NCBI GenBank assembly: GCA_029975965.1
Contig: JARKOV010000121.1
Location: 10,848 to 74,847, forward strand
Source of the DNA: Anaerolinea sp.
Lineage (GTDB): Bacteria; Chloroflexota; Anaerolineae; Anaerolineales; Anaerolineaceae
Length of the DNA: 64,000 nucleotides
Direction: 5' to 3'
In this document: positions 44,137 to 60,233 of the stretch, piece by piece
Layout of the letters: each line of letters opens with the position of its first letter
Numbering within the stretch: the stretch's first letter is position 1
Made by a program: the position numbers and the translations under genes
The notes under the pieces: generated by a model
Databases searched by the model: none
The model's input: only the letters and a program-made list of their open reading frames with translations
Told to the model about the DNA's origin: nothing

Positions 44137-45378
44137 ATGGCTTCGCTTAAATTAGGAATCGTGGGCGCCGGGTTCGTGGCCCATTTTCATGTCCGCGCCT
44201 TGATGCAAATGCGCGGCTTCGACGTCGATGGGGTTGTTTCCCCGAACCGGGCGGCGAAACTGGCGGAGGTGGTCAGGCGGCATCACCTCGGTGAAGGCAA
44301 GGTATACCCGAGCATTCGCGAGATGGCCAACCATGTCGACGTGATTGCTCTTTACGCGCCGAACTACCTGCGGGTGGAGATGGTCGAGGAACTGGTCGAG
44401 GCGGTCCGGCAGGGCGCAGCGCTCCAAGGGGTGATCTGCGAAAAACCGCTGGCGCGTAACGTGAAAGAGGCGCGGCGGCTGGTGGAGTTGATCGAGTCGG
44501 TTGGGTTGAAGAACGCCTACTTTGAAAACCAGATCTTTATGAAACCGATCCAGGCGCAGCGAAGCCAGTTGGCTTCATTGCAGGCCAGCATGGGTCCGCT
44601 CTCGCTGGTGCGCTCGGCGGAGGAGCACGGCGGACCTCACGAAGGGTGGTTCTGGGATCCGACTCGCCAGGGCGGTGGGGTGCTCAGTGACATGGGCTGC
44701 CACAGCATCGCCGCCGGCTGGTATTGCCTGACGCCGGTCAGCAAGCCGGTCGACTTCCTCCAGCCCGTTTCGGTGATGGCCGATTGCGCGCTGCTCAAAT
44801 GGGGCCAGCCGCAGTGGCGCGAGAAGCTGCTCCGCGAGCGGGGTGTGGATTACGCCAAAACGCCGGCGGAAGACTTCACCACCGGCATGGTCACCTTCCG
44901 CAACCCAGAGACCGGCCAGCGTGTCAAAGCGCAGTTCACCAACTCCTGGATGTTTGAGAAGCAGGGATTACGCCTGTTGATGGACGGTATGGGGCCGGGC
45001 TACGCTTTCGAGGCCAACACACTGCAATCCACCCTGAGCATTTTCATCGGGGATGCCGCCGCAGAAGCCATCGCCAATGCCGAGCTGGCGCTGGAGAAAT
45101 CGACTGCGTCGCGGGGTTTGTTGGCGGTGCAGTACAACGAGCCGGACCTGTACGGTTACACCGACGAAAATATCGAAGCGGCCGAGGCCTTCGCCGCCGG
45201 GCGAGACGGGATGCTGACCTGGCGTTACGGCCTGGAGATCACCCGACTGGTGATGGCGGCGTACATGGCAGCCGAACGCAAGAAGACGATCGACCTGACC
45301 GATCCGGCAGTGCAGCAGGAGTTGGAAAGCTACATCCCCTTGATCCAGCAGGGGCGCGGGGCAGAAGTGCTGTATTAA
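44137..45378 (+). CDS. Gfo/Idh/MocA-family oxidoreductase
   Basis: A 413-residue NAD(P)-dependent sugar or inositol dehydrogenase-like protein. The Rossmann loop is LGIVGAGFVAHFHVRAL (about 4-20) and the family EKP motif is in VICEKPLARNVKEA (about 110). The catalytic-region His lies in SDMGCHSIA (about 190). The ATG at 44137 is set by AAAGGAGG at 44124-44131. The stop overlaps by four bases, tail to tail, with that of rfbD. Substrate is unknown; sugar-acid or glycoside oxidation would fit the setting. Confidence 0.9.
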   Translation: MASLKLGIVGAGFVAHFHVRALMQMRGFDVDGVVSPNRAAKLAEVVRRHHLGEGKVYPSIREMANHVDVIALYAPNYLRVEMVEELVEAVRQGAALQGVICEKPLARNVKEARRLVELIESVGLKNAYFENQIFMKPIQAQRSQLASLQASMGPLSLVRSAEEHGGPHEGWFWDPTRQGGGVLSDMGCHSIAAGWYCLTPVSKPVDFLQPVSVMADCALLKWGQPQWREKLLRERGVDYAKTPAEDFTTGMVTFRNPETGQRVKAQFTNSWMFEKQGLRLLMDGMGPGYAFEANTLQSTLSIFIGDAAAEAIANAELALEKSTASRGLLAVQYNEPDLYGYTDENIEAAEAFAAGRDGMLTWRYGLEITRLVMAAYMAAERKKTIDLTDPAVQQELESYIPLIQQGRGAEVLY

Positions 45379-46253
45379 CCCATTGCCAGGCGCAAGGCAT
45401 CGCGCCAGGGTGGCAGGCGCAGGCCAAATGTGCGCTCGTATTTGCCGCAATCGAGGGCCGAAAAGAGCGGCCGTTCGGCGGGAGATGGAAAATCGACCGT
45501 TTTCGCCGGCGACACCTGGTGCGCCGTGCGCAGTTCGGGCTGCGGATCGCAGGCGAGGATCTCCTGCGCCCATTCGTAGCGGCTGGCGTAGCCGCTGCCC
45601 GCCAGGTGGTAGATTCCGCTGTGCTCGCCGGCCCAACCATGCGGATCGTCGCCAGCCTGCGCCAGCATTTGCGCGGTGACCTCGGCCAACATCCGTGCCC
45701 AGGTCGGGTTGCTGACCTGGTCCGAGACCACCTTCAGCTCCGCTTGCCGGCGCGACCATTCCAGCACTTTGCTGACGAAGCTGTCGCGGCGGTTGGAATA
45801 CACCCACGCGGTGCGCAATATCAACGCGGCGCAGCCGGATGCCAGGATAGCCTGCTCGCCCTCCCACTTGGTGCGCCCGTACACGTTGAGCGGATTAGGG
45901 GCATCCGATTCGAGGTATGGAGAGCCTTTTCGCCCGTCGAAGACGAAATCGGTCGAAAAATGGATCAAGGCTGCGCCACATTTGCGGGCGGCGTCGGCCA
46001 GGGCGGCGCTGGCCTCGGTGTTGATCAGGCGGGCCAGGTCGGGCTCGCTTTCGGCTTTGTCCACCAGGGTGTAAGCGGCGCTGTTATAAATCACCTGCGG
46101 GCAGTGCTGCTTGACCAGGCCGGCCAGCGTTCCAGGATTGCGAAAATCCACCTCGGGATAGTCGAACGAGTAGACCTCGCCGAGGGTGGCGAGTGTGCGC
46201 TGCGCCTCCCAGCCGAGTTGACCGGTCTTGCCGAGCAGCAGGATGCGAATCAC
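45375..46253 (-). CDS. rfbD: dTDP-4-dehydrorhamnose reductase
   Basis: A 292-residue NADPH-dependent reductase completing dTDP-L-rhamnose synthesis. The nucleotide loop is [14 protein letters not shown] (about 5-18), the FSTDFVFDG block carries the catalytic Thr/Asp region, and Tyr-x3-Lys appears in [11 protein letters not shown]. It is the last gene of rfbCBAD, overlapping the end of rfbA by four bases. Product sugar is used for cell-surface polysaccharide; no glycosyltransferase is present in the window. Confidence 0.95.
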
Positions 46254-47125
46254 TTGATGCGCCCCTCGAGCAAATCGAGCAGGTACTTGCCGTAGGCGTT
46301 TCCGGCATAACGCGCGGCTTGCTGGCGCAGTTGAGCTCCATCAATAAAGCCGAGGCGGTAGGCGATTTCTTCCGGGCAGGAGATCATCATGCCCTGCCGG
46401 TCTTCGACCGCCTGGACGAAATTGGCTGCCTGGAGTAGCGACTCATGGGTGCCGGCATCTAGCCAGGCCACGCCTCGACCGAGGGTCATCACCTGCAGCT
46501 CACCGCGCTCCAGGTAGATGCGGTTGAGATCGGTAATTTCCAGCTCTCCACGCGCCGAGGGTTTCAACGCCGCGGCAAGCCCGGCGACCTGCTGGTCGTA
46601 GAAGTAAATGCCTGGCACGGCATAATGCGATTTGGGTTGCAATGGTTTTTCCTCGATGCTCAAGGCGCGACCCTGGGCGTCGAATTCGACCACGCCGTAT
46701 CGCTCGGGGTCGCGCACGCCGTAGGCAAAGATCACCGCGCCGCTGGTGAGCCCGGCGGCCTGGCGCAGCGTGGTGGGCAACCCCTGTCCGTAGAAGATGT
46801 TGTCGCCAAGGATCAGGCAGGCGGTGTCTCCGCCGAGAAAATCGCGCCCGATGATGAAGGATTCGGCCAGCCCACGCGGCTCGGCTTGCTCCGCATAGGC
46901 AAACTTCAACCCCCACTGGCTGCCATCGCCCAGCAGGCGGCGGAAGACCGGCAGGTCTTCCGGGGTGCTGATCACCAGTATCTCGCGGATACCCGCCAGC
47001 ATGAGCATGGAGAGCGGGTAATAGACCATTGGTTTGTCATAGACAGGCAGGAGCTGCTTGCTCACGCCGAGGGTCAGCGGGTAGAGCCGGGTGCCTTTTC
47101 CACCGGCCAGGATAATCCCTTTCAT
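46250..47125 (-). CDS. rfbA: Glucose-1-phosphate thymidylyltransferase
   Basis: A 291-residue enzyme making dTDP-glucose from glucose-1-phosphate and dTTP, the first step of the rhamnose pathway. The N-terminal pyrophosphorylase signature is intact ([17 protein letters not shown]), with [20 protein letters not shown] (metal Asp) and SIEEKP following. The ATG at 47125 overlaps the rfbB stop (ATGA). A longer frame to 47203 is rejected because it would run into rfbB. Confidence 0.96.
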
Positions 47126-48210
47126 GGTTTTCCTCCACGTTGGCCATAATTCTTGTCCATCCAGCCGAGCAAGCCGGAGTCCTTTGCCACAGCTTCTACC
47201 CATTGTGGATGGCTCATGTACCAGCGAACGGTCTCCAGCAGGCCGTTTGCCAGGTCTATCCCGGGTCGCCAGCCCAGCTCGCTTTCGATTTTGCGGATAT
47301 CCATCGCATACCGCCGGTCATGCCCCGGGCGGTCCGTCACAAAGCGGATCAGGTCACGGTGCGGGCGGTGGGATGAGGCGGGCGCCAACTCGTCGAGGAT
47401 GTCGCACAGGGTGTGGACGATCTGCAGGTTGGCCGGTTGGTTGCCCCCGCCGATATTGTAGGTCTCGCCCAGCCGGCCGCGGGTGACCACCTGCCAGATC
47501 GCCTCGCAGTGGTCGACAACGTACAACCAGTCGCGCACCTGCTGCCCGTCACCGTAGACAGGCAGTGGTTTGCCGTTCAGGGCGTTGAAGATCATCAGCG
47601 GGATCAGTTTTTCGGGATACTGGTAAGGGCCGTAGTTGTTGGAGCAGTTGGAAATCGTCACCGGAAGCCCATAGGTGTGGTGGTAGGCGCGTACCAGGTG
47701 ATCGCTGGAGGCTTTGCTTGCAGAATAGGGCGAGCGCGGCGAGTAGGGGGTGGTCTCGGTGAAGGCAGGGTCGGTGGGTGAAAGCGAGCCGAACACTTCG
47801 TCGGTGGAAACATGGTGAAAACGTGCCTGATCGAGTGGGGCAATTTGATCGACCAGCCAGGCTTGCCGGGCGGCTTCGAGCAAGGTGAAGGTGCCGACGA
47901 TGTTGGTCTGGATGAAGGTGGCCGGCCCCAGGATGGAGCGGTCCACGTGCGATTCGGCGGCGAAATGCACCACTGTGTCGAAGGCGTGTTGCTGGAAGAG
48001 ACTCTGCACCAACTGGTTGTCGCAGATATCGCCATGAACGAACTGATGCCTGGTAGGGTCGGAGAGATCGGCGAGGTTTTCCAGGCTGCCGGCGTAGGTG
48101 AGCGCATCCAGGTTGACGATTTGAACGCCCGGATCCGCAGCCAGCAGGTACCGGATGAAATTCGAACCGATAAAACCGGCGCCGCCGGTGACGAGAACGT
48201 GCTTGGCCAT
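47122..48210 (-). CDS. rfbB: dTDP-glucose 4,6-dehydratase
   Basis: A 362-residue NAD-dependent SDR-type dehydratase converting dTDP-glucose to the 4-keto-6-deoxy sugar. The NAD loop is [12 protein letters not shown] (about 7-18), [12 protein letters not shown] follows, the catalytic segment is STDEVFGSL, and the active Tyr-x3-Lys is in [17 protein letters not shown]-type sequence appears as [15 protein letters not shown]. It lies 36 bp after rfbC and overlaps rfbA. Confidence 0.96.
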
Positions 48211-48246
48211 GCTACCTCCCTGCCAAATGAATTTTGCCAGATAATC

Positions 48247-48804
48247 TCAGACCCGGTCGAACAGGTCGGCTTCGCTCAGCAACTTGCCCTGCCGATCTTT
48301 CTCTGAAAGAAGCGGCTCTTCTCCGGGGGGAACCGGCCACTCGATCGCCAGCGCCGGATCGTTCCATAGAAGGGTGCGTTCCCATTGCGGGGCGTAGTAA
48401 TCGGTGACTTTGTAGAAGAATTCAGCCCATTCGCTGAGCACGTAAAACCCGTGGGCGAATCCGGGTGGGACCCACAACTGGCGGTGGTTTTCCGCCGAAA
48501 GACGCGTGCCGGTCCACCGGCCAAAGGTGGGTGAGCCCAGGCGAAGGTCAACGGCCACATCGAAAATCTCACCCGTCACAACCCGCACCAGCTTGCCTTG
48601 GGGCTGGCGGATCTGGTAATGCAAACCGCGCAAAATCCCCTTTCGCGATCCAGACTGGTTGTCCTGGACGAAATTGGCAGGGATTCCTGCTTCGGCGTAA
48701 AGCTGCGCCTGGTAGGTTTCCATGAAATAACCGCGTGCATCCCCGTGCAACTGCGGGGTGATGATCAGCACGTCTGGGATTTGAGCGGGTTGAATATCGA
48801 GCAT
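48247..48804 (-). CDS. rfbC: dTDP-4-dehydrorhamnose 3,5-epimerase
   Basis: A 185-residue cupin epimerase, first gene of the operon. Family marks: RGYFMETYQ, FVQDNQSGSRKGILRGLHYQ with the catalytic His, FDVAVDLRLGSPTFG, and WVPPGFAHGFYVLS. Start at 48804; a promoter with TTGTTT-17-TACAAT lies 49 bp upstream. The order C-B-A-D with short gaps gives a complete, co-transcribed pathway. Confidence 0.95.
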   Translation of the reverse strand: MLDIQPAQIPDVLIITPQLHGDARGYFMETYQAQLYAEAGIPANFVQDNQSGSRKGILRGLHYQIRQPQGKLVRVVTGEIFDVAVDLRLGSPTFGRWTGTRLSAENHRQLWVPPGFAHGFYVLSEWAEFFYKVTDYYAPQWERTLLWNDPALAIEWPVPPGEEPLLSEKDRQGKLLSEADLFDRV

Positions 48805-49310: not shown

Positions 49311-52205
49311 ATGCTGAATGCATCAACGGTCATCTCATCTATCGCATTGCTTTTCTACGCCGGTCTGTTATTGATCGTCAACCTGCGCAGTGGGAAAAGC
49401 CGCCTTAACATGTACTTTTCGCTCTACCTGGCGACCATGCTGGTGTGGAGCCTGGGCTCGTTGATGATTTTTGCCGGTCTCCCCCTGGTGGATACCACCT
49501 TCTGGAACCGCTTTATGGTCATCGGGTCTACGGCAATGCCGGTGGCGTTTTTCGGCTTCGTGCAGGTGTACCTGATGCGCGACCGGAGCCGCTGGCTCTG
49601 GCTCGGCTATATCGTGTATCTCATCATCCAGGTTGCCAACCTGCTGGGGTGGGTGATCGTCGATGCGCAGGTGACCAACGGCACGTTGACCAACCAGTAT
49701 GGTCCAGCCATCTATCTGACCAGCCTGACCTGGGTCTTCTTTATGGGTTTTTCTGCCTTCAGCCTGTTCGTGGAATTTCGCCGCACCAAGGAGCCGATCA
49801 ACCGCAACCGGATCAAATACCTGATCATTGTGTTGGGGGTCATTTTCTTGGGCGCCTCGACCAACTCCACCGCCCTGCAAATTTACCCGGTCGATATTGC
49901 CTTCAACATCCTTTCGGCGCTGATCATCGCCTACGCGATTTTCCGTTACCAACTGGTCGATATCAACCGGGTGGTGCGCAAGGGGTTGTTGTATTCGTCG
50001 ACGACCGTCATCATCGGCACGATGTACTTCCTGGTGATCTTTGTCATTTCGCGCATCTTCCACGTGCTGACCGAGCCTACGCTCTTTATCCTGGCGGTGG
50101 TCGTGGCGGTGATGACGGCGGTGTTGGCACAGCCGCTCAAAGAAAAGGCGCAATCCTGGGTGGACCGGTTGTTCTACCGTGAAACGTACGATGTCAACTT
50201 GATGACCCAGCGCCTCAACCAGACGATGACCAGCGTCCTCGACCTGAATCAGTTGACCCAGATGATTTTGGACGAAGTCACCGGCACGATGCACATGCTT
50301 TACGCGGGTTTCTTCTTGCGCCTGGGCGAAAAAGGTGAGTTCTACCTGATGGTCCAGAAGGGCATGAAGGTGACTGACTTGAAACTGAGCAACCAGCATC
50401 CTCTGGTGGAGTACTTCCAGCAGAACAATGAAGCCCTTTCGCGCTATAACCTGGAAGTTCTGCCCCAATTCCGCGCGCTCTGGCAAAAAGAGCGCGCCGA
50501 GCTGGAGCAGGTGGGCGGCGAGCTTTACCTGCCGCTGAAAAGCAAGGGCGAGCTGGTGGGAATCTTCGTGGTTGGTCCGAAGCGCTCCGACCTTCCGTAT
50601 ACCCAGGAGGATCAAACCGTCCTGTTGACGCTGGCGCGCCAGATGGCCTCCGCCATAGAGAACGCTCTGCTGTTTGCCGGCGAGGCTCGCCGGAGGCATG
50701 AAGCAGAAACCCTGCAGAATGCGCTGTTGCAGCTTACCTCGGACATCGATCTCGAACAGGTGCTGGATAACATCCTGGTCAACCTGGCTTCGGTCATCCC
50801 CTATGACAGCGCCTGCCTGTTCCTTCTGCAGCGCGACCAGTTGATTGCGGTGGCGGGGCGTGGCTTCGAAAACCTGGAGCAAGTGCTCGGGCAGGAATAC
50901 CCGGTTGAAGAAGACGACCTGTTCCTCGAAATCCAGCGCACCCGCCGCCCGTTGCTGATTGCCGACGTGCGGGACCATTACAAATTCAAGGCGTATGCCG
51001 GGACGCGCAACATCCGTAGCTGGATGGGCGTTCCGTTGATTGCCCGTGGCACGGTGATCGGTTGCCTGACCCTGGACAGCCACACGCCCGGGGTATACAG
51101 CCAGAGCGAGCAGGCTAACCTGGCGCTGGCGTTTGCCAGCCATGCAAGCATTGCGGTAGAAAATTCCCGCCTGTTCAAGGTCGAGCGCGAGCAACGCCAG
51201 TTGGCCGAAGCGTTGCGTGAGATTGGCGCCATCTTGAGCACGACGCTCGACTTCGATAACGTGCTGGATTTACTCCTCGATCAGGTCGGGCGGGTGGTGC
51301 CCTATTCGGTGGCCAACATCATCCTGGTGGAGGGCAACCGCACGCGCATCGCGCGCACACGCTACCACGAGACGATCGATCCCGAAGTGGCGCAACTGCT
51401 CAAGACGTCGGTGTTCAACATCTCGCCTTCGCCGCACATCTATTACATGATCGACTCGGCCCAGCCGCTGGTTCTGCCGGTGGTGCCCGATTATGCGGAG
51501 TGGATCGAAAGCCCGGTGCCGATTCGTTCCTGGATCGGCGCGCCGGTGCTGGTCAAGGGCAAGGTGATCGGATGCTTCTCGCTTTCGACCCTCGAGCCGG
51601 ACGTCTACCGCTATCGCCACGCCGAGTTGCTTTCGGTCTTTGCCGGGCAGGCGGCGCTCGCCATGCAGAATGCACGGCTGTTCTCGGAAATCCAGCAACT
51701 GGCGACGGTCGACGAGTTGACGGGCATCTTCAACCGGAGGCATCTGTTCGAGCTGGGCGAGCGCGAATTTGGCCGCGCGCAGCGTTACAACCGCCCGCTA
51801 TCGGCGATCATGCTCGACATCGATGAATTCAAGCGGGTGAACGACAATTACGGCCACATGGTCGGCGACCAGGTGTTGCGGGTCGTCGCCGAGCGCTGTA
51901 AATCGAACATTCGCGAGGTCGACATCCTGGGTCGGTATGGCGGGGAGGAGTTCACCATCATCCTGCCCGAGGCGACGCGCCAGGACGCCTACAATATATG
52001 CGAGCGCCTGCGCAGACACGTCGCCATCATGCCGATTACCACCACGGCCGGCGCATTGAAAATCACCATCAGCCTGGGAACCGCCAGCTTGAGCGTTGAG
52101 ACGCCCAACCTGGTTAAGTTAATCGAATGCGCCGACATCGCGATGTACGAGGCAAAGAGGAGCGGGCGTAACAAAGCTTGTGCTTTTGAAGAGATCAGCG
52201 TTTAA
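49311..52205 (+). CDS. 7TM-GAF sensor diguanylate cyclase (GGDEF)
   Basis: A 964-residue membrane sensor predicted to make cyclic di-GMP. The first about 245 residues are a seven-span histidine-kinase-type N-terminal receptor domain. Three GAF-like domains follow (about 280-455, 475-630 and 640-800), then a GGDEF domain (about 800-960). The active-site loop is GGEEF (877-881), and RxxD (868-871) stands five residues before it, the product-inhibition I-site, so an active, feedback-controlled enzyme is expected. The first 460 residues are clearly paralogous to the HD-GYP protein at 54619. ATG at 49311 is chosen because it aligns with that paralogue's start; a GTG at 49284 would add nine residues. 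First gene of a four-gene unit. Confidence 0.9.
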   Translation: MLNASTVISSIALLFYAGLLLIVNLRSGKSRLNMYFSLYLATMLVWSLGSLMIFAGLPLVDTTFWNRFMVIGSTAMPVAFFGFVQVYLMRDRSRWLWLGYIVYLIIQVANLLGWVIVDAQVTNGTLTNQYGPAIYLTSLTWVFFMGFSAFSLFVEFRRTKEPINRNRIKYLIIVLGVIFLGASTNSTALQIYPVDIAFNILSALIIAYAIFRYQLVDINRVVRKGLLYSSTTVIIGTMYFLVIFVISRIFHVLTEPTLFILAVVVAVMTAVLAQPLKEKAQSWVDRLFYRETYDVNLMTQRLNQTMTSVLDLNQLTQMILDEVTGTMHMLYAGFFLRLGEKGEFYLMVQKGMKVTDLKLSNQHPLVEYFQQNNEALSRYNLEVLPQFRALWQKERAELEQVGGELYLPLKSKGELVGIFVVGPKRSDLPYTQEDQTVLLTLARQMASAIENALLFAGEARRRHEAETLQNALLQLTSDIDLEQVLDNILVNLASVIPYDSACLFLLQRDQLIAVAGRGFENLEQVLGQEYPVEEDDLFLEIQRTRRPLLIADVRDHYKFKAYAGTRNIRSWMGVPLIARGTVIGCLTLDSHTPGVYSQSEQANLALAFASHASIAVENSRLFKVEREQRQLAEALREIGAILSTTLDFDNVLDLLLDQVGRVVPYSVANIILVEGNRTRIARTRYHETIDPEVAQLLKTSVFNISPSPHIYYMIDSAQPLVLPVVPDYAEWIESPVPIRSWIGAPVLVKGKVIGCFSLSTLEPDVYRYRHAELLSVFAGQAALAMQNARLFSEIQQLATVDELTGIFNRRHLFELGEREFGRAQRYNRPLSAIMLDIDEFKRVNDNYGHMVGDQVLRVVAERCKSNIREVDILGRYGGEEFTIILPEATRQDAYNICERLRRHVAIMPITTTAGALKITISLGTASLSVETPNLVKLIECADIAMYEAKRSGRNKACAFEEISV

Positions 52206-52251
52206 TATGGCTTACGTGGGAATTTAATGGGTATGCCGGGAGCTTGCCAGG

Positions 52252-52971
52252 ATGAGCGATAAAAAGGTCATCGTTGAAGCCTTCACCGAAATGTCATCTC
52301 ACTACGAATCTACGGTCGATAGTGAGTTGAAACGATTTTGGGGTTGGAGTTACAATGATTTCATTGAAAACCTGGTCGACATGGCGTCCTTGCGAGACGA
52401 GGATGTTGTGTTGGATATCGCGACCGGCACAGGTGTGATTCCGACCCGGTTAATGCAGCGTGGGAAATCCGGCGGGAAGATTGTTGGGTTAGACATCACG
52501 TTTGCCATGCTGCAGAAGGCGGCGAAAAAAGCCGAAAACAATCGATGGAGCGAATCCATTGAGTTGACGTGCGCTTCGGCGATGCACATGCCGTTCCGTT
52601 CGGGTCATTTCGACGTGATCTTCTGTGCCCTGGCTACCCATCACCTGGATGTGCCGGAGGTGTTATCAGAGATGAATCGCGTGTTGAAATCGGGGGGAAA
52701 ACTGGCCATCGCCGACGTGGGTGGGTCGGCAGCCTGGCGCCTTCCGGTCATTAACACGCTGATGCGCACCGCGACATTTTTGTATTTTTTGCCAAAAGAA
52801 GGGCGCGCCCGGGCCGCTTCAGAAGCGGCCGCCCTGAACAATGTCTTCACAAGAAAGGAGTGGGAGGGGAAATTAAATGAGTTGCGTTTTCGAGATATAT
52901 CGATAGTCGATCTCCCTGCGAGCCATTTTTGGTCTCCGACGCCATTTGTCATCCGCGCTGTAAAGAATTGA
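52252..52971 (+). CDS. Class I SAM-dependent methyltransferase (UbiE-like)
   Basis: A 239-residue Rossmann-fold methyltransferase. The SAM loop reads VLDIATGTGVIPTRL (about 46-60), the second acidic site is IVGLDITFAML, and the post-III region has MPFRSGHFDVIFC and LKSGGKLAIADVG. It resembles the UbiE/COQ5 group but no quinone gene is nearby. It lies 46 bp after the GGDEF gene and 11 bp before the GH3-like gene, so it is probably part of the same transcript and may act on the same small molecule as the adenylating enzyme. Confidence 0.88.
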   Translation: MSDKKVIVEAFTEMSSHYESTVDSELKRFWGWSYNDFIENLVDMASLRDEDVVLDIATGTGVIPTRLMQRGKSGGKIVGLDITFAMLQKAAKKAENNRWSESIELTCASAMHMPFRSGHFDVIFCALATHHLDVPEVLSEMNRVLKSGGKLAIADVGGSAAWRLPVINTLMRTATFLYFLPKEGRARAASEAAALNNVFTRKEWEGKLNELRFRDISIVDLPASHFWSPTPFVIRAVKN

Positions 52972-52982
52972 GTGGAGTGAGC

Positions 52983-54590
52983 ATGATGCCAACAACTGCG
53001 ATTGAGCTATTGCGCCAGGGACGTAAAAACCAGATTTGGACCAAGTATTGTGGTTTTTTGGATTTGAGCGTGAAAGAATTCATGCAAATCCAGGAACGTC
53101 TCTTGATGGAGCAGATCAACCTCATTTCTCGAAGCGAACTTGGAAAATATTTCTTGGGGGACAGAGTTCCAAATAGCTTGGCAGAATTCCGTGCCAGGGT
53201 GCCCGTGACCACGTATGAAGATTACGAGCCCTACCTGGATCCAGAAAAAGATTATTTCAATGACGCCTACACCTGGGCGCACACTTCGGGCCGTTCCGGA
53301 AAGTTCAAGTGGATTCCCTATACCAAAGAGGCATACGATCGCCTGGGCGAGCGGGTGCTGAGTGGGGTCATCCTCGGGTCGGCTCGCGAGAAGGGCGATG
53401 TGCGCCTCGAAGAAGGCGATGTATTAGTCTACAACACCCCCCCACGACCCTACATCAGTGGGATTGCGTTGCGCGCCCTCGCCGACCAGTTCAACTTCCG
53501 GTTTATCCCTGAGCTGGATAAAACGGAGCAGATGGAATTCCAGGAGCGCATTCTGACGGGCTTCAACGTCGGCATGCGTACCGGCATCGATATTCTTGGC
53601 TCGATGTCTGCTGTGCTGGTCAAGATGGGCGAATCCTTCACCAGTGGGGCGCGGAAAACCAAAATTTCGCGCAGCATGTTGCACCCGCAGGTGCTGTTCC
53701 GCATGATCCGGGGCCTGATTCGCAGCAAACTGGAGGGGCGCGCGATGCTCCCCAAGGATTTGTGGACATTGAAGGCTCTGCCCTGCGGCGGCGCCGATAC
53801 CGCCATCTACCGCGATAAGATCGCCTATTTTTGGGGCGCCTTGCCATACGAACAGTACGGTTGCACCGAAGAGGGCGCCATCGCCACGCAGGCCTGGAAC
53901 AAACGCTACATGACCTTCTTCCCGGATGCGGCGTTCTACGAGTTTATTCCGGAAGAAGAATGGGCCAAGTGGCGCTTGAACCCGGCTCATATTCCCCAGA
54001 CGGTGCTCTTTGATCAGGTGGTGCCCAATAAGCGCTACGAGGTGGTGCTGACCAATTTCTACGGAAAACCCTTGATGCGCTACCGCACCTACGACCTGAT
54101 CGAGTTTCCTGTGCTGCAGGACGAGGAAATCGGCGTCAGGCTCCCCCAGATGTCCTTCGTCGGGCGCACGGCCGACTTCATCGACCTGGCCGGCTTCACC
54201 GGTCTGATCGACGAGCGCATGGTCTGGAAGGCGATCAACGAGACGGGCATCGAGTACAACGAATGGGCGATCCGCAAGGAAACCCACGACGGTGACCCGA
54301 TCTTGCGCCTGTACATGGAGCCCAAGCAAAACGTGGACCGCGAGACCATCCGGCACAAGGTACACGAGGCGCTGAAAGGCGTCAATTCTTTCTACGCCGA
54401 TTACGAGTCGATGATCGAGAAACCCGCGTTAGATGTCACCGTGCTCACGCCGGGGACCTTCCAGGCCTACATGATGGAGAAACAAGCGGCCGGGGCTGAC
54501 CTGTCGCATCTCAAGCCGCCGCACATGAACGCCTCGGATGAAGTGATCGAGACTTTGCTCAAGCACAACGGGAACGGGAAAGGAAATTAA
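52983..54590 (+). CDS. GH3 (auxin-responsive promoter type) acyl-adenylate/amido synthetase
   Basis: A 535-residue member of the GH3 family, whose plant members activate carboxylic acids with ATP and join them to amino acids. ATP-binding motifs are visible: TSGRSGKFKWIPYT (motif I, about 102-115), YGCTEEGAIA (motif II, about 300) and MRYRTYDLIEF (motif III, about 370). Bacterial members exist but their products are mostly unknown. ATG 52983 follows GAGTGGAG; the frame from 52929 would overlap the methyltransferase. Gene three of the sensor-flanked unit. Confidence 0.87.
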   Translation: MMPTTAIELLRQGRKNQIWTKYCGFLDLSVKEFMQIQERLLMEQINLISRSELGKYFLGDRVPNSLAEFRARVPVTTYEDYEPYLDPEKDYFNDAYTWAHTSGRSGKFKWIPYTKEAYDRLGERVLSGVILGSAREKGDVRLEEGDVLVYNTPPRPYISGIALRALADQFNFRFIPELDKTEQMEFQERILTGFNVGMRTGIDILGSMSAVLVKMGESFTSGARKTKISRSMLHPQVLFRMIRGLIRSKLEGRAMLPKDLWTLKALPCGGADTAIYRDKIAYFWGALPYEQYGCTEEGAIATQAWNKRYMTFFPDAAFYEFIPEEEWAKWRLNPAHIPQTVLFDQVVPNKRYEVVLTNFYGKPLMRYRTYDLIEFPVLQDEEIGVRLPQMSFVGRTADFIDLAGFTGLIDERMVWKAINETGIEYNEWAIRKETHDGDPILRLYMEPKQNVDRETIRHKVHEALKGVNSFYADYESMIEKPALDVTVLTPGTFQAYMMEKQAAGADLSHLKPPHMNASDEVIETLLKHNGNGKGN

Positions 54591-54618
54591 CCCTGGTCCG
54601 TAAGATCGAGATGCACCG

Positions 54619-57126
54619 ATGATCTCATACGCCTCAACCATCATCGCATTAGTGGCGCTGATATATTACAGCGCCTTGATGGTTTTCATCTTGAGGCAGG
54701 ATATTCGCGATCGGGTGAGGCTGTTTTTCAGCCTCTACCTGCTCTCGATGATCATCTGGAGCTTATCGGCTTTCATGATTTTTTCGGACCTCGGCCTCAT
54801 GACCACCGTTTTCTGGAACCGTGTCCTGGTCGTGGGCTCGATGGCCATGCCGGTGGCTTTCTTTGGATTCGTGCAAGCCTTCCTTATGCAAGACCGGCAG
54901 CGCTGGCTGTTGGTAGGGTTGATCACCTACCTGGTCATCCAGGTGGCCAACGTGTCGGGGCAGGTGATCCTGTCCGCCTACATGCAAGACGGTTACCTGT
55001 ACAACGAATATGGCGGTTTTGGGTTGATCTTGACCGGTTCGAGCTGGGCCTTTTTCCTGGGCTTTTCGGCGTACGATTTGATTCAAGCCTATCGCCGCTC
55101 GAAAGACTCGGCCTTTCGCAACCGCTTGAAGTACCTGTTCCTGGTGGTTATGGCCATTTTTACCGGGACATTGACCAACCTGACCGCGCTGAAGCATTTT
55201 CCGGGTGACGTCGCGGCCAATATCATTTCGGCGCTGCTGATCACCTATGCCATTTTGCGCCACCAGTTGCTGGATATCAGCAACGTGGTGCGCAAAGGTC
55301 TGTTGTACTCGCTGCCCACCCTGGTCATCGCGCTCAGTTATTACGTGATCATTTTCGTTGCCCAGGCGATCTTCCACACGGTGATTGGCTTTCAATTGGT
55401 GTTGATCTCGTTGATCGTGGCGATCCTGACGGCAGTGATTGTGGTTCCGGTGCGCGACAAGATGCAGAACTGGGTCGACCAGGTGTTTTTCCGTGAAAAA
55501 TACAACACCGGGTTAATGCTTCAGCGCATCAGCCAGACGGTCGCCTACGAGCTCGACCTGAACAACCTCTCTGAGATGGTGCTGAAAGAGGTCACCTCGA
55601 CGCTCCACATCGACCGGATGGCCTTTTTCATCCGCCAGGAGGAGGCGCGTTATTTCGAGCTGCGGGCGCATGTGGGTGAAGATCTACCCCCCGGGTTGGT
55701 GATGGACCGCGATCATCCGATTGTGCAGATGATGACCCGGCTGGATCGCTGCCTGACGCGTTACGATTTAAGCGTCATGCCGCAATTCCGCTCGATGTGG
55801 GCGGACGAACGCAATGAACTGGAAACCCTTGGCGCTGAATTGCTCATTCCACTCAAAGTGAAGGGTGAGCTGGTCGGAATTCTGACGGTCGGCCCGAAAC
55901 GCTCGGGTGAGACGTACACGGATGACGACCAGCTCACCCTGATGACCCTGGCAAACCAGATCTCGATTGCCACGGAGCGCGCGCGACTCTATTCGGCCGA
56001 GCAATCGCGCCGCGCCGAACTGGACACCCTTTACAAGCTCACCCGCCAGCTGGTTGTGCTGGATGACGTGGAGAGCGTGCTGCAAAGCACGGTAAAGCAC
56101 ATTGTCAACAGCGCGCACGTCACATTTGCTCGCCTGGTCGTGCTGCAGGGCGAAGCCGTGTTCCGCTGCAAGGCGGCTTACCCGATCCGCGAGTTGGGTT
56201 ACGATTTAGGCCTGGACCAGATTGAGCCGGAAGAGAGCACGCTGTATTACCTGCGGGCCTTGCGCAAGCTGGATGTCACGTTGCTTTCGCGCTTTGATCC
56301 CTTCATGAGCAACGAGTCGCGCGCCGCCCTGAAACTTGACCTGGCGACTTCGATTTGTCTGTCTCCCTTGCGGTTGGATGGCAAACCCTACGGCTTGTTC
56401 GTGCTGGGTGAGGCGCGCCGGGAGGCTCGCGAGCCGTTCGATGATAACAAAATCCGCTTGATCAGTGCAATTACCGACCAGGCTGCCAGCGCGCTGCAGC
56501 GCGCCAACATGCACGAGCAAGTGGAAAACACCTTCTTTGAAACCATCCTGGCCCTGGCAAACACGATGGACGCGCGCGACACCTACACCAGCAATCACAG
56601 CCTGCGCCTGGCATACCTGGCAGAGGCCGTCTGTCGTGAGCTGCATTGCAGCGAAGAGATCATCCAGTCGGTGCATTGGGCGGCGCTGCTGCATGACATC
56701 GGCAAAATTGGCGTGCCAGATGAAATACTGCGCAAGCCGGGTCCGTTGACCGATGAAGAATGGCAGATCATGCGCCAGCATCCCGAAGTGGGCGCTCGCA
56801 TCGTCGCTCCAATCAAGCGGCTGGCAAATGTCGCGCCGTTGATCCGCTCACACCACGAGCGCTACGACGGCAGCGGTTACCCGGAGGGCTTGCAGGGTGA
56901 GAAGATCCCCTTCGGGGCGCGCCTGCTGACCATCGTCGATGCGTATGGCGCGATGACCGACGTGCGGGTGTATCGCATGAACCGCAAGCCCAGCGAGGCG
57001 ATTGAGGAGTTGAAACGCTGCCGGGGAAAACAGTTCGACCCACAACTGGTGGATGTGTTCGTGCGCATTCTCGAGCGTGACGCCACGCGCCCGCTGGATC
57101 CATCGGTGCTTGGCAGGTACGGGTAA
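54619..57126 (+). CDS. 7TM-GAF sensor with HD-GYP output (cyclic di-GMP phosphodiesterase type)
   Basis: An 835-residue membrane sensor. The seven-span receptor (about 1-245) and first GAF (about 275-460) are paralogous to the diguanylate cyclase at 49311, with shared blocks such as MPVAFFGFVQ, VVRKGLLYS and GELVGI..VGPKRS. A second GAF follows (about 470-640), then an HD-GYP domain (about 645-820). Metal and signature residues are intact: HD at 692-693 in HDIGKIGVP and GYP at 753-755 in YDGSGYPEG, so hydrolysis of cyclic di-GMP is expected. It lies 28 bp after the GH3-like gene and ends the unit. Confidence 0.9.
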   Translation: MISYASTIIALVALIYYSALMVFILRQDIRDRVRLFFSLYLLSMIIWSLSAFMIFSDLGLMTTVFWNRVLVVGSMAMPVAFFGFVQAFLMQDRQRWLLVGLITYLVIQVANVSGQVILSAYMQDGYLYNEYGGFGLILTGSSWAFFLGFSAYDLIQAYRRSKDSAFRNRLKYLFLVVMAIFTGTLTNLTALKHFPGDVAANIISALLITYAILRHQLLDISNVVRKGLLYSLPTLVIALSYYVIIFVAQAIFHTVIGFQLVLISLIVAILTAVIVVPVRDKMQNWVDQVFFREKYNTGLMLQRISQTVAYELDLNNLSEMVLKEVTSTLHIDRMAFFIRQEEARYFELRAHVGEDLPPGLVMDRDHPIVQMMTRLDRCLTRYDLSVMPQFRSMWADERNELETLGAELLIPLKVKGELVGILTVGPKRSGETYTDDDQLTLMTLANQISIATERARLYSAEQSRRAELDTLYKLTRQLVVLDDVESVLQSTVKHIVNSAHVTFARLVVLQGEAVFRCKAAYPIRELGYDLGLDQIEPEESTLYYLRALRKLDVTLLSRFDPFMSNESRAALKLDLATSICLSPLRLDGKPYGLFVLGEARREAREPFDDNKIRLISAITDQAASALQRANMHEQVENTFFETILALANTMDARDTYTSNHSLRLAYLAEAVCRELHCSEEIIQSVHWAALLHDIGKIGVPDEILRKPGPLTDEEWQIMRQHPEVGARIVAPIKRLANVAPLIRSHHERYDGSGYPEGLQGEKIPFGARLLTIVDAYGAMTDVRVYRMNRKPSEAIEELKRCRGKQFDPQLVDVFVRILERDATRPLDPSVLGRYG

Positions 57127-57179: not shown

Positions 57180-57773
57180 ATGAATTTGGCTGGCAATTCA
57201 GGCAAACCCCCCGAGCTGTTCATTGTGGTGGATGTCGAGGCGGCTGGTCCTACCCCTGGAAAGTATGCCCTGCTTTCGATTGGGGCATGCACGGTGGGTG
57301 AGCCTCGCCAGACGTTTTATGTCGAGCTGCAACCCGACAGCGGGGAGGTCGAAGCCGGCGCGATGAGCATCCATCACCTCGAGATGGATGCGCTGGCGGC
57401 AAACGGGTTGGAACCGCGCGAGGCATTGCAGCGGTTTGCCGCATGGGTGGAAAAGGTGACACCACAAGGAGCCGTGCCCGTCTTCACAGCTTTCAATGCG
57501 CCCTTCGATTGGATGTTCGTCAACGAGTATTTTCATCGCTACCTGGGATGGAATCCTTTTGGACACAAAGGTCTGGACGTCAAGGCGTATTTCATGGGTC
57601 TGCATGGCGTTTCGTGGATGGAGACTTCGTTCCAATCGATCTGCGCGCATTATGGGGTGGTCGCCAGCCTGACGCACAATGCAGTGGAGGATGCCATTCA
57701 AGAAGCGGATTTATTCAGCTACATCCTGGCAGATATGCGACAGCGACAACTAGGAAAGGGGACCGATCAATGA
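57180..57773 (+). CDS. DEDDh-type 3'-5' exonuclease
   Basis: A 197-residue exonuclease of the DnaQ/RNase T superfamily. Exo I is VVDVEAAGPTPGKYALLSIG (Asp and Glu, about 18-21), Exo II is TAFNAPFDWMFV (Asp about 109), and Exo III has His and Asp in LTHNAVEDAIQEADL. It would trim DNA or RNA 3' ends. A GGAGG lies upstream of the ATG at 57180. The stop overlaps the next gene's start (ATGA), so the two proteins are translationally coupled. Confidence 0.88.
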   Translation: MNLAGNSGKPPELFIVVDVEAAGPTPGKYALLSIGACTVGEPRQTFYVELQPDSGEVEAGAMSIHHLEMDALAANGLEPREALQRFAAWVEKVTPQGAVPVFTAFNAPFDWMFVNEYFHRYLGWNPFGHKGLDVKAYFMGLHGVSWMETSFQSICAHYGVVASLTHNAVEDAIQEADLFSYILADMRQRQLGKGTDQ

Positions 57774-59089
57774 GCGAGCCATCTTCTTATCAGGCAGATT
57801 TGCAGCGGATTATCGAATCGGCACGCCGCTTGGGCGTTGAGCTGGACGAGGCAGACGCGCTGCAGTGGTTGACCGCGGTGAGCGCCGGGAAAGCCGAAGA
57901 GGTCATGGTGGATGAGCGGAGTGGGACCTTCGGACATCACATCGCCATGCTGGATTTCAGCCCGGCCGAGCTGGCTCACTTCCGAAAGATCGGCAGGCTG
58001 GTGGAGTTTGCCGACGTGCCGGGCAAAGTGGAGACGGCCCTGGCTTTATCCGGTTCGGCAGCCCAGTCCAAGGTGCAGACCTACCCGGGCGATTGCGATT
58101 ACTTCGAGCGCGTCAATATCCTCGCGCCCACTCGCGAGGAAGCCTGCCGCATCCTGGGCGAGATCATGCGCGAGAAAGCTCTCGCCACGCTGAAAGGCGC
58201 GGAGTACACCCTGATCGAGGTGAAGCTGGGGAATTATCCCTTCGACATCGTGCGCAATGGTGATCTGGAAAAGGCCGGACGGCCAATCGCCTGGCTGCCT
58301 GCGGAGATCGAAGCCGGGCGCATCAGCGGTCAGACCCCGGATGGCCAGCCGGCCGAGATCACCTGGGAGCAGGCGGCCAGCCAGCCCGGCTGGTGCAAGC
58401 TGGATTGGGTCGTGGCCGATCCAGTGCGCAAGCAACTGGTCAACGCCAGCAACATGCTGGATGTGACCTGGGAAGCGCCGGATGGCTCGATCACCCCCCT
58501 CGACGGATACCTGGACTCGTACTTCCAGGAAATTTACCTGGAGGCCGACTCGGTACCGGTCTTCAGCAAGCTGGTCAAGCACGTCTCGGGCGACGCGCTC
58601 GATCAATACGTGGCCCAACTGACCAACGAGGTCAAAAAGTACGTCACCAAAGACGCCAATTACGGGAAAGCCGCCAAGCGGATGTACAATATCTTCCGCC
58701 TGACCGGGCGCTACGCCGAAGCGGCCTACCTGCGCGAGCTGTTCGACGAGCCGACGACCATGCTCTACCAGGTGTGGTCGTTGATTCGCACCATCGACGA
58801 CACTTTCTCGGGGCCATCGGAGATCGACCTGGACACGCTGCTGGGCCAGGCCGACCAGTTGATCTTGTCAGTGATCGATGCGCTGGAGGGAGAGCACGAA
58901 GTTGAGATCGTGCGCCTGCTGCTGCGCTTCCGCAGCCTGGTCCAGGCGGACGCGCCGAAGGGCGAGCTTTCTGCCCCGGCCAATGCGGCGCGCGCCGAGC
59001 TGATCAATGTGGTTAACAATTTCTTCTATGATAAGCTGACCGGCGTACCGGAAATTCGCGAGTATATTGAGCAACTCAAGAGCGAATAA
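57770..59089 (+). CDS. Protein of unknown function with a nucleotidyltransferase-like GS...DxD motif
   Basis: A 439-residue protein I cannot assign to a named family. Near residues 87-102 it has GSAAQSK...GDCDYFE, which fits the pol-beta nucleotidyltransferase signature G-S-x(9-13)-D-x-D, followed by an acidic strand candidate in LIEVKLG. The C-terminal part is helical and rich in charged residues. The ATG at 57770 has AAGGGG upstream and overlaps the exonuclease stop; the frame above only shadows that gene. Coupling with an exonuclease suggests nucleic-acid or nucleotide metabolism (inference). Confidence 0.75.
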   Translation: MSEPSSYQADLQRIIESARRLGVELDEADALQWLTAVSAGKAEEVMVDERSGTFGHHIAMLDFSPAELAHFRKIGRLVEFADVPGKVETALALSGSAAQSKVQTYPGDCDYFERVNILAPTREEACRILGEIMREKALATLKGAEYTLIEVKLGNYPFDIVRNGDLEKAGRPIAWLPAEIEAGRISGQTPDGQPAEITWEQAASQPGWCKLDWVVADPVRKQLVNASNMLDVTWEAPDGSITPLDGYLDSYFQEIYLEADSVPVFSKLVKHVSGDALDQYVAQLTNEVKKYVTKDANYGKAAKRMYNIFRLTGRYAEAAYLRELFDEPTTMLYQVWSLIRTIDDTFSGPSEIDLDTLLGQADQLILSVIDALEGEHEVEIVRLLLRFRSLVQADAPKGELSAPANAARAELINVVNNFFYDKLTGVPEIREYIEQLKSE

Positions 59090-59213: not shown

Positions 59214-60233
59214 ATGACCCTCGGCAACCGTATGACTGATCGGGCTGAGATGCAAGGTGCAGCGGCTTCTGTCGAGGATTGGCTTCTGCGCGGGCCAGCC
59301 TGGGTTCGATACCGGGCGATGCTGGACCTGGGGATCGAGGATGGCGGCGCAGCCGCCACCCGGTTGGATGTGTTGCGCGATGCGCAGGTGCAGGCTCTCA
59401 TCGCCGGCCTTGCGGATTGGCCGGGCGAAGTACTCAACAGCCACCGCTCAGCCAGCCAGCCTTATCACCGCTTGAATTTCCTCGCCGACCTCGGTTTGCG
59501 CGCAGATGACCCAGGCATGGCGGTGATCGTGGAGCGGATTTTCGAGCATGCCAGCGCCGAGGGACCGTTCCAGCTCCCGCTCAACATCTCGAAAGGGCAT
59601 GGGGGGACGGGCGAAGATACCTGGGCCTGGGCCCTGTGTGACGCCCCACTGTTGGTGTACGCTTTGACCAGGCTTGGGTTGGGTGACCACCCACTGGTTC
59701 AACGCGCGGCGCAGCACTTGCTTTCTCTGGTGCGGGAGAATGGATGGCCCTGCGCGGTGTCTCCCGAAATGGGTGGCTTTCGCGGACCGGGTCGCAGCAG
59801 CGACCCATGCCCGTATGCCAACCTTGCCATGCTCAAAATGCTGGGGCAGTATACCGAACTGCGCGATTGCTGGCCGGCTGTTGCCGGTGTAGAGACTCTT
59901 CTGGGGCTCTGGGAGCGGCGCCGTAGCGAACACCCGTATATTTTCTACATGGGCACAGATTTCTGCAAATTGAAGGCTCCGCTGGTCTGGTACGACCTGT
60001 TGCACGTCCTGGATACCCTGGCCATGTTTCCAGGTGTTGGGGCAGACCCTCGGTTCGCCGATATGCTGCGCAATTTGCAAGAAAAACAGGACGGCGAAGG
60101 TCGTTTCACGGCCGAATCGGTCTATACCGCCTGGAAAGAATGGGAGTTTGGACAGAAAAAAACGCCTTCGAGATGGATCACGTTGATCGCCAGGCGGGTG
60201 ATCCGGCGAAGTGCTGGGAATCCGTTGGGATAG
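59214..60233 (+). CDS. Conserved helical (alpha-toroid-like) protein of unknown function
   Basis: A 339-residue soluble protein built of helical repeats. Stretches such as AWVRYRAMLDLG, DTWAWALCDAPLLVYAL, CPYANLAMLKMLGQY and PLVWYDLLHVLDTLAMFP resemble the paired helices of terpenoid-cyclase/squalene-oxidase-like toroids. The DxDD-type catalytic motif of cyclases is not seen, so an enzymatic role is unproven. The ATG at 59214 has AGGAGGA at 59203-59209. It stands alone between a hairpin and the riboswitch region. Confidence 0.75.
   Translation: MTLGNRMTDRAEMQGAAASVEDWLLRGPAWVRYRAMLDLGIEDGGAAATRLDVLRDAQVQALIAGLADWPGEVLNSHRSASQPYHRLNFLADLGLRADDPGMAVIVERIFEHASAEGPFQLPLNISKGHGGTGEDTWAWALCDAPLLVYALTRLGLGDHPLVQRAAQHLLSLVRENGWPCAVSPEMGGFRGPGRSSDPCPYANLAMLKMLGQYTELRDCWPAVAGVETLLGLWERRRSEHPYIFYMGTDFCKLKAPLVWYDLLHVLDTLAMFPGVGADPRFADMLRNLQEKQDGEGRFTAESVYTAWKEWEFGQKKTPSRWITLIARRVIRRSAGNPLG

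What the first reader, a model, noticed from the sequence alone, without database searches (positions are those of the whole stretch)
49311..57126. Two paralogous 7TM-GAF sensors with opposite cyclic di-GMP outputs enclose a methyltransferase and a GH3-type adenylating enzyme
Four same-strand genes with gaps of 46, 11 and 28 bp look like one transcript. The outer two share about 460 homologous N-terminal residues (seven-span receptor plus GAF) but end in GGDEF with an intact I-site (make) and HD-GYP (break). The inner two would modify a small carboxylic acid: GH3 proteins adenylate acids and join them to amino acids, and the methyltransferase could cap or tailor the product. A coherent hypothesis is a self-contained signal system: enzymes make an acyl-amino-acid-like signal, and paired receptors read it, or a precursor, to push cyclic di-GMP up or down. 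I know of no described system with this layout. The link between enzymes and receptors is inference from gene order.
Basis: partly seen in the sequence, partly recalled or inferred. Interest (0 to 1): 0.88.

Follow-up and report, generated by a model that had tools for sequence, protein, structure and literature searches.

The report
Enzyme-and-receptor signalling cassette with c-di-GMP outputs
A bacterial gene cluster pairs enzymes predicted to build a methylated, amide-linked small molecule with a membrane receptor that controls the second messenger cyclic di-GMP, and the same enzyme-receptor set recurs in distant bacteria, so it looks like an undescribed chemical signalling system.

Summary
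The four same-strand genes are present as described. The receptors share 49% identity over 456 residues; one ends in GGDEF (GGEEF with an RxxD I-site), the other in an intact HD-GYP. The sensor has nine hydrophobic helices, not seven. The full four-gene set was shown only here and in Anaerolinea thermolimosa, but its core, methyltransferase + GH3 + 9TM-GAF receptor, is widely conserved. Of 76 loci read (this window, 74 genomes from the phyla of A. thermolimosa and of a Bacillota MAG, one IMG/VR contig), 65 have a receptor downstream of GH3 on the same strand and 8 have it divergent 2.8-5.1 kb away; two contigs end at GH3 and one locus lacks it. The receptor output is swapped freely: histidine kinase, hybrid kinase, HD-GYP, or GGDEF+HD-GYP. 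The methyltransferase comes in two unrelated families. Receptor and GH3 trees agree (r = 0.90). This strongly supports a dedicated enzyme-receptor unit. Best reading: GH3 makes an amide (probably N-acyl-amino-acid-like), a methyltransferase caps it, and the receptor reads it; activity, ligand and secretion are untested. Closest precedents: OlsH/OlsG and PhcB/PhcS. No described system with this layout was found in the searches made.

The parts
49311..52205 (+). 9TM-GAF-GAF-GAF-GGDEF receptor, predicted diguanylate cyclase with I-site (local paralogue of the HD-GYP receptor)
   Evidence: Pfam HisKA_7TM 45 bits, three GAF stretches, GGDEF 159 bits; nine hydrophobic segments, REVD I-site before GGEEF; same place in L001 4336-7227
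52252..52971 (+). soluble class-I SAM-dependent methyltransferase
   Evidence: Methyltransf_11 80 bits; relatives near GH3 in 21 of 76 loci; in other loci an ICMT/PEMT-type membrane methyltransferase takes the place
52983..54590 (+). GH3-family adenylating enzyme, predicted acyl acid amido synthetase
   Evidence: Pfam GH3/GH3_M/GH3_C above cut-off; first PDB matches by sequence profile and by predicted fold are plant GH3 amido synthetases; motifs TSGRSGK, YGCTEEG, RYRTYD
54619..57126 (+). 9TM-GAF-GAF-HD-GYP receptor, predicted c-di-GMP phosphodiesterase; the conserved receptor position downstream of GH3
   Evidence: Pfam HisKA_7TM 36 bits, GAF, HD_5 145 bits; HDIGK and HHERYDGSGYP intact; predicted model matches HD-GYP structures 4mcw, 9rbz, 4r8z

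Best explanation
This is a self-contained chemical signalling cassette. GH3 activates an acid with ATP and joins it to an amine, most likely a fatty acid to an amino acid (inferred from family chemistry). The methyltransferase caps the product, perhaps as a methyl ester or on nitrogen, giving a membrane-permeant amphiphile (inferred). The 9TM domain of the receptor encoded next to GH3 binds that product in the membrane and passes the state through GAF domains to a swappable output (architecture shown, ligand inferred). In Anaerolinea the receptor was duplicated, so one ligand could drive both synthesis (GGDEF) and breakdown (HD-GYP) of cyclic di-GMP (inferred). My split: dedicated enzyme-receptor unit 0.9; the enzymes make the receptor's ligand 0.65; the ligand is a methylated N-acyl amino acid 0.4; it is secreted and density-dependent 0.4.
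For: Receptor downstream of GH3 on the same strand in 65 of 76 loci (next gene in 61, second or third in 4) and divergent 2.8-5.1 kb away in 8 more. 39 of 40 GH3-bearing genomes examined have a receptor of 269 bits or more, against 1 of 28 without GH3. HisKA_7TM genes are few, 77 matches in 25 genomes; with about 3,500 genes per genome (assumed) chance adjacency is of the order of 0.1% per locus. A methyltransferase of one of two unrelated families lies next to GH3 in 65 of 76 loci (63, L057, L051); 4 more end at a contig edge. Among the five ORFs on either side in all 76 loci, no family other than receptor/output proteins and the two methyltransferases occurs in more than 14 loci, and none of those larger ones reaches both phyla. 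GH3 and receptor trees: r = 0.90, 0 of 999 permutations as high, 33 of 49 bipartitions shared. Precedents: OlsH, a bacterial GH3 making N-acyl-ornithine, in an operon with methyltransferase OlsG (PMC12493201); PhcB/PhcS, methyltransferase signal synthase with histidine-kinase receptor (PMC11960443).
Against: No activity, ligand or export is shown. Seven loci have no recognised methyltransferase beside GH3 (L048, L053, L124, L127, L136-L138). Motif I of GH3 is altered in Bacillota (TTWEGGK-like instead of TSGRSGK-like), so ATP use there is less certain. No canonical GG(D/E)EF was found by my pattern in the 17 receptors of the Bacillota order draw. Genome G013 has receptor-like proteins (280 and 228 bits) but no GH3 match; weaker ones (175-191 bits) occur in three more genomes without GH3; G114 has GH3 without receptor. 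GH3 is sporadic in every draw. Matching trees would also follow from joint vertical inheritance of a linked pair. The receptor profile was built from GH3-linked receptors, so its scores favour them.
Confidence: 0.6

Rival explanations
1. Lipid homeostasis: GH3 and the methyltransferase make a structural aminolipid (ornithine-lipid-like, as OlsH/OlsG do), and the 9TM receptor monitors the membrane or that lipid in the same cell and adjusts surface behaviour or lipid synthesis. It is a sensor-regulated lipid module, not communication.
For: OlsH and OlsG lie in one operon and trimethyl-ornithine lipid is lost in the olsH mutant (PMC12493201); the membrane methyltransferase is of the ICMT/PEMT type, relatives of which act on lipids or lipidated residues; some loci carry a DNA-binding response regulator beside the kinase, e.g. 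L052.
Against: No third enzyme family recurs across the loci, so no OlsI-like partner is evident; OlsH model far below cut-off, 32.5 of 620 bits; many outputs are c-di-GMP enzymes rather than transcription control; GH3 is sporadic within its groups, 29 of 298 and 17 of 148 genomes, unlike a bulk membrane lipid.
Confidence: 0.2
2. Signal conversion: the acid is the signal, from the environment or from other cells, and GH3 plus methyltransferase inactivate or convert it, as plant GH3 enzymes control auxin, while the receptor reads the free acid.
For: Plant GH3 enzymes conjugate and so inactivate or activate acid hormones (family knowledge; PDB relatives); tight linkage fits feedback control of a ligand.
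Against: Two conserved successive modifications look more like biosynthesis than removal (judgement); no further gene family, hence no uptake gene, recurs across the loci.
Confidence: 0.12
3. Neighbourhood hitchhiking: the genes are adjacent for historical reasons and act in separate pathways.
For: Flanking sugar genes are also kept between the window and L001.
Against: The core persists while flanks, gene order (GH3-methyltransferase-receptor in L049, L052, L054), orientation and receptor output change, in two phyla, with strong co-occurrence.
Confidence: 0.03

Closest known systems
OlsH-OlsG-OlsI ornithine-lipid operon, Singulisphaera acidiphila (PMC12493201)
   Same: Bacterial GH3 enzyme encoded with a SAM methyltransferase; GH3 forms an N-acyl amino acid from a free fatty acid, ATP and ornithine
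   Different: The reported three-gene operon has no receptor and has acyltransferase OlsI; the window GH3 scores 32.5 bits against the OlsH cut-off of 620; the paper's main text has no hit for 'chloroflex'
PhcB-PhcS(-PhcR) quorum sensing of the Ralstonia solanacearum complex (PMC11960443)
   Same: Methyltransferase-made lipidic signal; synthase and histidine-kinase receptor in one operon (phcBSR); PhcB and PhcS sequences group by signal type
   Different: No GH3 or amide ligase in the described pathway; signal is a hydroxy fatty acid methyl ester; output reaches the transcription factor PhcA, not c-di-GMP enzymes in the receptor
Plant GH3 acyl acid amido synthetases (JAR1, GH3.5, GH3.12)
   Same: Same enzyme family and fold; JAR1 makes the hormone jasmonoyl-isoleucine (stated in PMC12493201)
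   Different: 16-19% identity in the fold match; plant receptors are soluble and unrelated (recalled)
LuxM/LuxN and CqsA/CqsS autoinducer synthase-receptor pairs (recalled, no call)
   Same: Synthase gene next to the gene of a polytopic membrane receptor kinase
   Different: Other chemistry and receptor families; phosphorelay rather than c-di-GMP output in the receptor
XrtA/PEP-CTERM histidine kinase PrsK (TIGR02916)
   Same: Weak similarity over residues 157-451 of the window GGDEF receptor, 37 bits
   Different: Far below its cut-off of 300 bits

Membership tests
[quoted passage not shown]
   PF03321 49.1, PF23571 44.9, PF23572 28.3 bits, cut-off 23.6 each
[quoted passage not shown]
   TSGRSGK, YGCTEEG, RYRTYD in the window protein; motif I is divergent in the Bacillota relatives
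[quoted passage not shown]
   needs an enzyme assay
OlsH lyso-ornithine lipid synthetase (NF052613) | score above curated cut-off | tested here: not met
   32.5 of 620 bits for the window; 21.9 for L002, 27.2 for L154, no hit for L128 and L121
UbiE/MenG methyltransferase (TIGR01934) | score above curated cut-off | tested here: not met
   73.7 of 158.35 bits
ICMT isoprenylcysteine carboxyl methyltransferase (membrane methyltransferase of related loci) | score above NCBIfam cut-off | tested here: not met
   NF040696 20.3 of 160 bits for L128, none for L002; yet the profile of 16 such proteins finds ICMT structures first, 4a2n E 5e-7
GGDEF diguanylate cyclase with I-site | GG(D/E)EF and RxxD five residues before it | tested here: met
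   REVD-ILGRY-GGEEF in the window protein
HD-GYP phosphodiesterase | HD and HHxxxxGxGYP signatures | tested here: met
   HDIGK, HHERYDGSGYP; PDB matches 4mcw, 9rbz, 4r8z
Synthase-receptor quorum-sensing pair | receptor gene linked to ligand-making enzyme genes across species | tested here: inconclusive
   Linkage met in 73 of 76 loci; that these enzymes make the ligand is assumed
Synthase-receptor quorum-sensing pair | secreted, density-dependent signal that binds the receptor | not testable with these tools
   needs chemistry and binding assays

The most novel reading that the evidence does not exclude
An undescribed class of bacterial cell-cell signalling in which a GH3 amide ligase and a methyltransferase make a methylated N-acyl-amino-acid-type autoinducer read by a 9TM-GAF receptor that directly makes or breaks cyclic di-GMP (or signals as a kinase), spread over Chloroflexota and Bacillota: a bacterial parallel to plant GH3-made hormone conjugates.
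Probability: 0.45. Interest if true: 0.95.

Novelty: new variant of a known kind. Interest (0 to 1): 0.86.

Why it matters
Only one paper in the held library contained all four terms Chloroflexi, Anaerolineae, quorum sensing and c-di-GMP, so chemical communication in this group looks little studied. A conserved enzyme-receptor cassette gives a concrete ligand hypothesis, a receptor family with no ligand known to me, and outputs that can be measured (c-di-GMP or kinase activity). It also offers a role for some of the uncharacterised bacterial GH3 proteins, whose functions the OlsH paper leaves open (PMC12493201).

Tried and rejected
Chance linkage: rejected. OlsH membership: rejected by cut-off. 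UbiE membership: rejected. 'Four-gene operon conserved as such': only the window and L001 were shown directly. In the protein searches a GH3, an HD-GYP receptor and a GGDEF receptor have identical longest-contig lengths in two further sets (8221; 338457), which suggests but does not prove the same layout.

L135 first looked like a methyltransferase-GH3 fusion. Only the C-terminal half of the methyltransferase is in the frame, so I make no claim; it is counted among the 63 loci with a methyltransferase. L141 (IMG/VR) first looked like a Clostridia case in my notes; its GH3 nests inside the Bacillota order-draw group, so it is not a further lineage. Close GH3 relatives carry Clostridia names (Syntrophomonadaceae, Desulfotomaculum sp. 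46_296, Anoxynatronum buryatiense), but their gene neighbourhoods could not be reached.

My ORF picker hid the methyltransferase in L051 and L057 behind an over-long GH3 frame; searches show them. My first I-site pattern was too strict and returned none; it was corrected. Structure confidence was modest (GH3 pLDDT 71.6, pTM 0.61; receptor pLDDT 77.7, pTM 0.44). Paper searches for an existing description gave listings in which I saw none; they cover the open PMC library only, no subscription papers or preprints, and except for PMC12493201 the listed papers were not opened.

Full report
What is there. Four genes on the + strand encode a GGDEF receptor (49311-52205), a class-I methyltransferase (52252-52971), a GH3 enzyme (52983-54590) and an HD-GYP receptor (54619-57126), with gaps of 46, 11 and 28 bp. 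The receptors align at 49% identity over 456 residues; the GGDEF protein has GGEEF with an RxxD I-site, and the HD-GYP protein has intact HD and GYP signatures. A simple hydropathy scan finds nine segments in both, with positive charges on alternate loops; of 59 GH3-linked receptors scanned, 55 give nine. Pfam's HisKA_7TM covers only about the first 220 residues, so I call the sensor 9TM.

How widespread. Class of A. thermolimosa: 57 of 298 genomes with a match, 29 strong and 28 with only weak matches of 33 bits or less. Phylum of A. thermolimosa: 26 of 301 at E 1e-20, one of them weak at 75 bits and two already known from the class draw. Order of the Bacillota MAG L002 (record titled Erysipelothrix sp.): 17 of 148. 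Phylum of L002: 12 of 392, six of them new. That makes 75 GH3-bearing genomes; I read the neighbourhood in 74 (G596, a partial hit, was left out), plus the window and one IMG/VR contig: 76 loci. The loci are not independent; some genomes are close relatives.

The core. A receptor lies downstream of GH3 on the same strand in 65 of 76 loci: the next gene in 61; L049, L052 and L054 have a methyltransferase in between, and L135 another ORF. In 8 loci from small Chloroflexota genomes (L126, L131-L134, L140, L160, L161) the receptor is divergent, 2.8-5.1 kb from GH3. L056 and L060 end at the GH3; L055 lacks the receptor in 9.4 kb downstream, with under 1 kb upstream held. Receptor outputs in the 68 loci: histidine kinase 23, hybrid kinase 5, HD-GYP 3, GGDEF+HD-GYP 26, two labelled by the sensor part only (L058, a HisKA_2 kinase by Pfam; L124, where GGDEF-HD-GYP is a separate ORF), and 9 without a downstream receptor. 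The six loci L154-L159 add six GGDEF+HD-GYP. HD and GYP signatures were found in every HD-GYP-bearing receptor listed. The GGDEF motif is not canonical by my pattern in the 17 receptors of the Bacillota order draw (for example GGDMF, SGKEF) but is GGEEF in L154-L159.

The methyltransferase. In one search the soluble enzyme of the window has relatives within five ORFs of GH3 in 21 loci, all Chloroflexota, and an integral-membrane enzyme with an RHPG motif in 44 loci, including 23 of 24 Bacillota loci (the other, L120, starts at GH3). The membrane enzyme scores around the PEMT cut-off and its profile finds ICMT structures first in the PDB. By script 63 of 76 loci have one or the other next to GH3; L051 and L057 were masked by my ORF picker and do have one; 4 end at a contig edge; 7 have none recognised. 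Two unrelated enzyme families filling one place suggests that methylation itself is what is kept.

Nothing else recurs. I clustered the five ORFs on either side of GH3 in all 76 loci (627 ORFs). Apart from receptors with their output proteins and the two methyltransferases, the largest families occur in 14, 12 and 10 loci, all in the small-genome Chloroflexota; families present in both phyla reach at most 4 loci.

Controls. HisKA_7TM is rare: 77 matches in 25 GH3-bearing genomes. A profile of linked receptors (A3) scores 269 bits or more in 39 of 40 GH3-bearing genomes examined and in 1 of 28 without GH3 (G013, 280 and 228 bits; next best G022 191, G008 180, G005 175). The profile was built from linked receptors, and the 28 were picked from the listings, not at random. 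Trees of GH3 and of the receptor N-termini over 52 loci correlate at 0.90 (0 of 999 permutations reached it; within groups 0.96, 0.77 and 0.92) and share 33 of 49 bipartitions. Dropped before this: loci with GH3 of 450 aa or less, loci without a downstream receptor, and L054, L057, L109 and L135; L154-L161 were fetched later. Joint vertical inheritance would also give this result.

What the enzymes may do. The predicted GH3 structure and the sequence profile find plant GH3 amido synthetases first. The nearest characterised bacterial precedent is OlsH of Singulisphaera acidiphila, which joins free fatty acids to ornithine and lies in an operon with methyltransferase OlsG and acyltransferase OlsI; its authors expect other bacterial GH3 proteins to make other N-acyl amino acids (PMC12493201: outline with abstract, passages, sections 6 and 8, and part 1 of 2 of section 9 read). 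The proteins here are not OlsH by the NCBIfam cut-off. Motif I of GH3 is TSGRSGK-like in Chloroflexota but TTWEGGK-like in Bacillota, which leaves ATP binding there less certain.

Mechanism. I favour a signal cassette: amide made by GH3, methyl cap, recognition by the 9TM domain, output through GAF domains. The parallel in logic is PhcB/PhcS of the Ralstonia solanacearum complex, where a methyltransferase makes a fatty-acid methyl ester read by a histidine kinase, and both proteins group by signal type (PMC11960443: start of abstract in the listing and passages). In seven of the eight rearranged Chloroflexota loci (not L133) the receptor adjoins a gene of 363-380 aa; these fall in one family of ten loci, and the one tested (L131) is a PilT/PilU-family type IV pilus ATPase (452 bits, cut-off 319). 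This points to surface behaviour as a possible output. The Anaerolinea arrangement, with separate GGDEF and HD-GYP receptors of one origin around the enzymes, could let one ligand turn c-di-GMP over in both directions; this is inference.

What remains open. Whether GH3 is active, what acid and amine it uses, whether the product leaves the cell, and whether it binds the receptor. The lipid-homeostasis rival is the strongest. No published description was found in the searches named under Tried and rejected.

Noticed in passing
L131 9777-10874; same place in L126, L132, L134, L140, L160, L161: A PilT/PilU-family ATPase gene (tested in L131 only; the others by BLAST family, place and length) lies next to the receptor in Chloroflexota loci where the receptor is divergent from GH3.
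   Followed up: partly
L126 11212-14538, L132 358-3696, L160 10380-13718: Receptors of about 1110 aa carry two tandem copies of the membrane sensor domain.
   Followed up: no
[not shown]
   Followed up: no
L054 1758-7847: GH3-linked histidine kinase of 2029 aa with eight GAF stretches.
   Followed up: no
window 45375-48804 (minus strand): Genes that look like a dTDP-rhamnose set lie upstream and are kept in L001; named from sequence by recall, a possible exopolysaccharide link to c-di-GMP.
   Followed up: no
window 57767-59089 and 59214-60233: Two ORFs of 440 and 339 aa downstream have no Pfam match at E 0.001.
   Followed up: no
Bacillota GH3 proteins, e.g. L002 677-2278, L141 8001-9635: Nucleotide-binding motif I is changed to TTWEGGK-like, while motifs II and III are recognisable.
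   Followed up: partly
G001 contig C4 6983-7651 and 43964-44632: Two HisKA_7TM matches with identical score on opposite strands of one contig, perhaps a large inverted duplication.
   Followed up: no
Small-genome Chloroflexota loci, e.g. L128 5165-5884: A short ORF of about 137 aa without Pfam match (family of 14 loci) and a short ORF family in 12 loci, a winged-helix protein in L128, lie upstream of the methyltransferase.
   Followed up: no
L154 1688-5319, same place in L155-L158: Divergent acetate-kinase-, phosphotransacetylase- and PEPCK-like genes sit upstream in five Bacillota loci (Pfam in L154 only; families).
   Followed up: no
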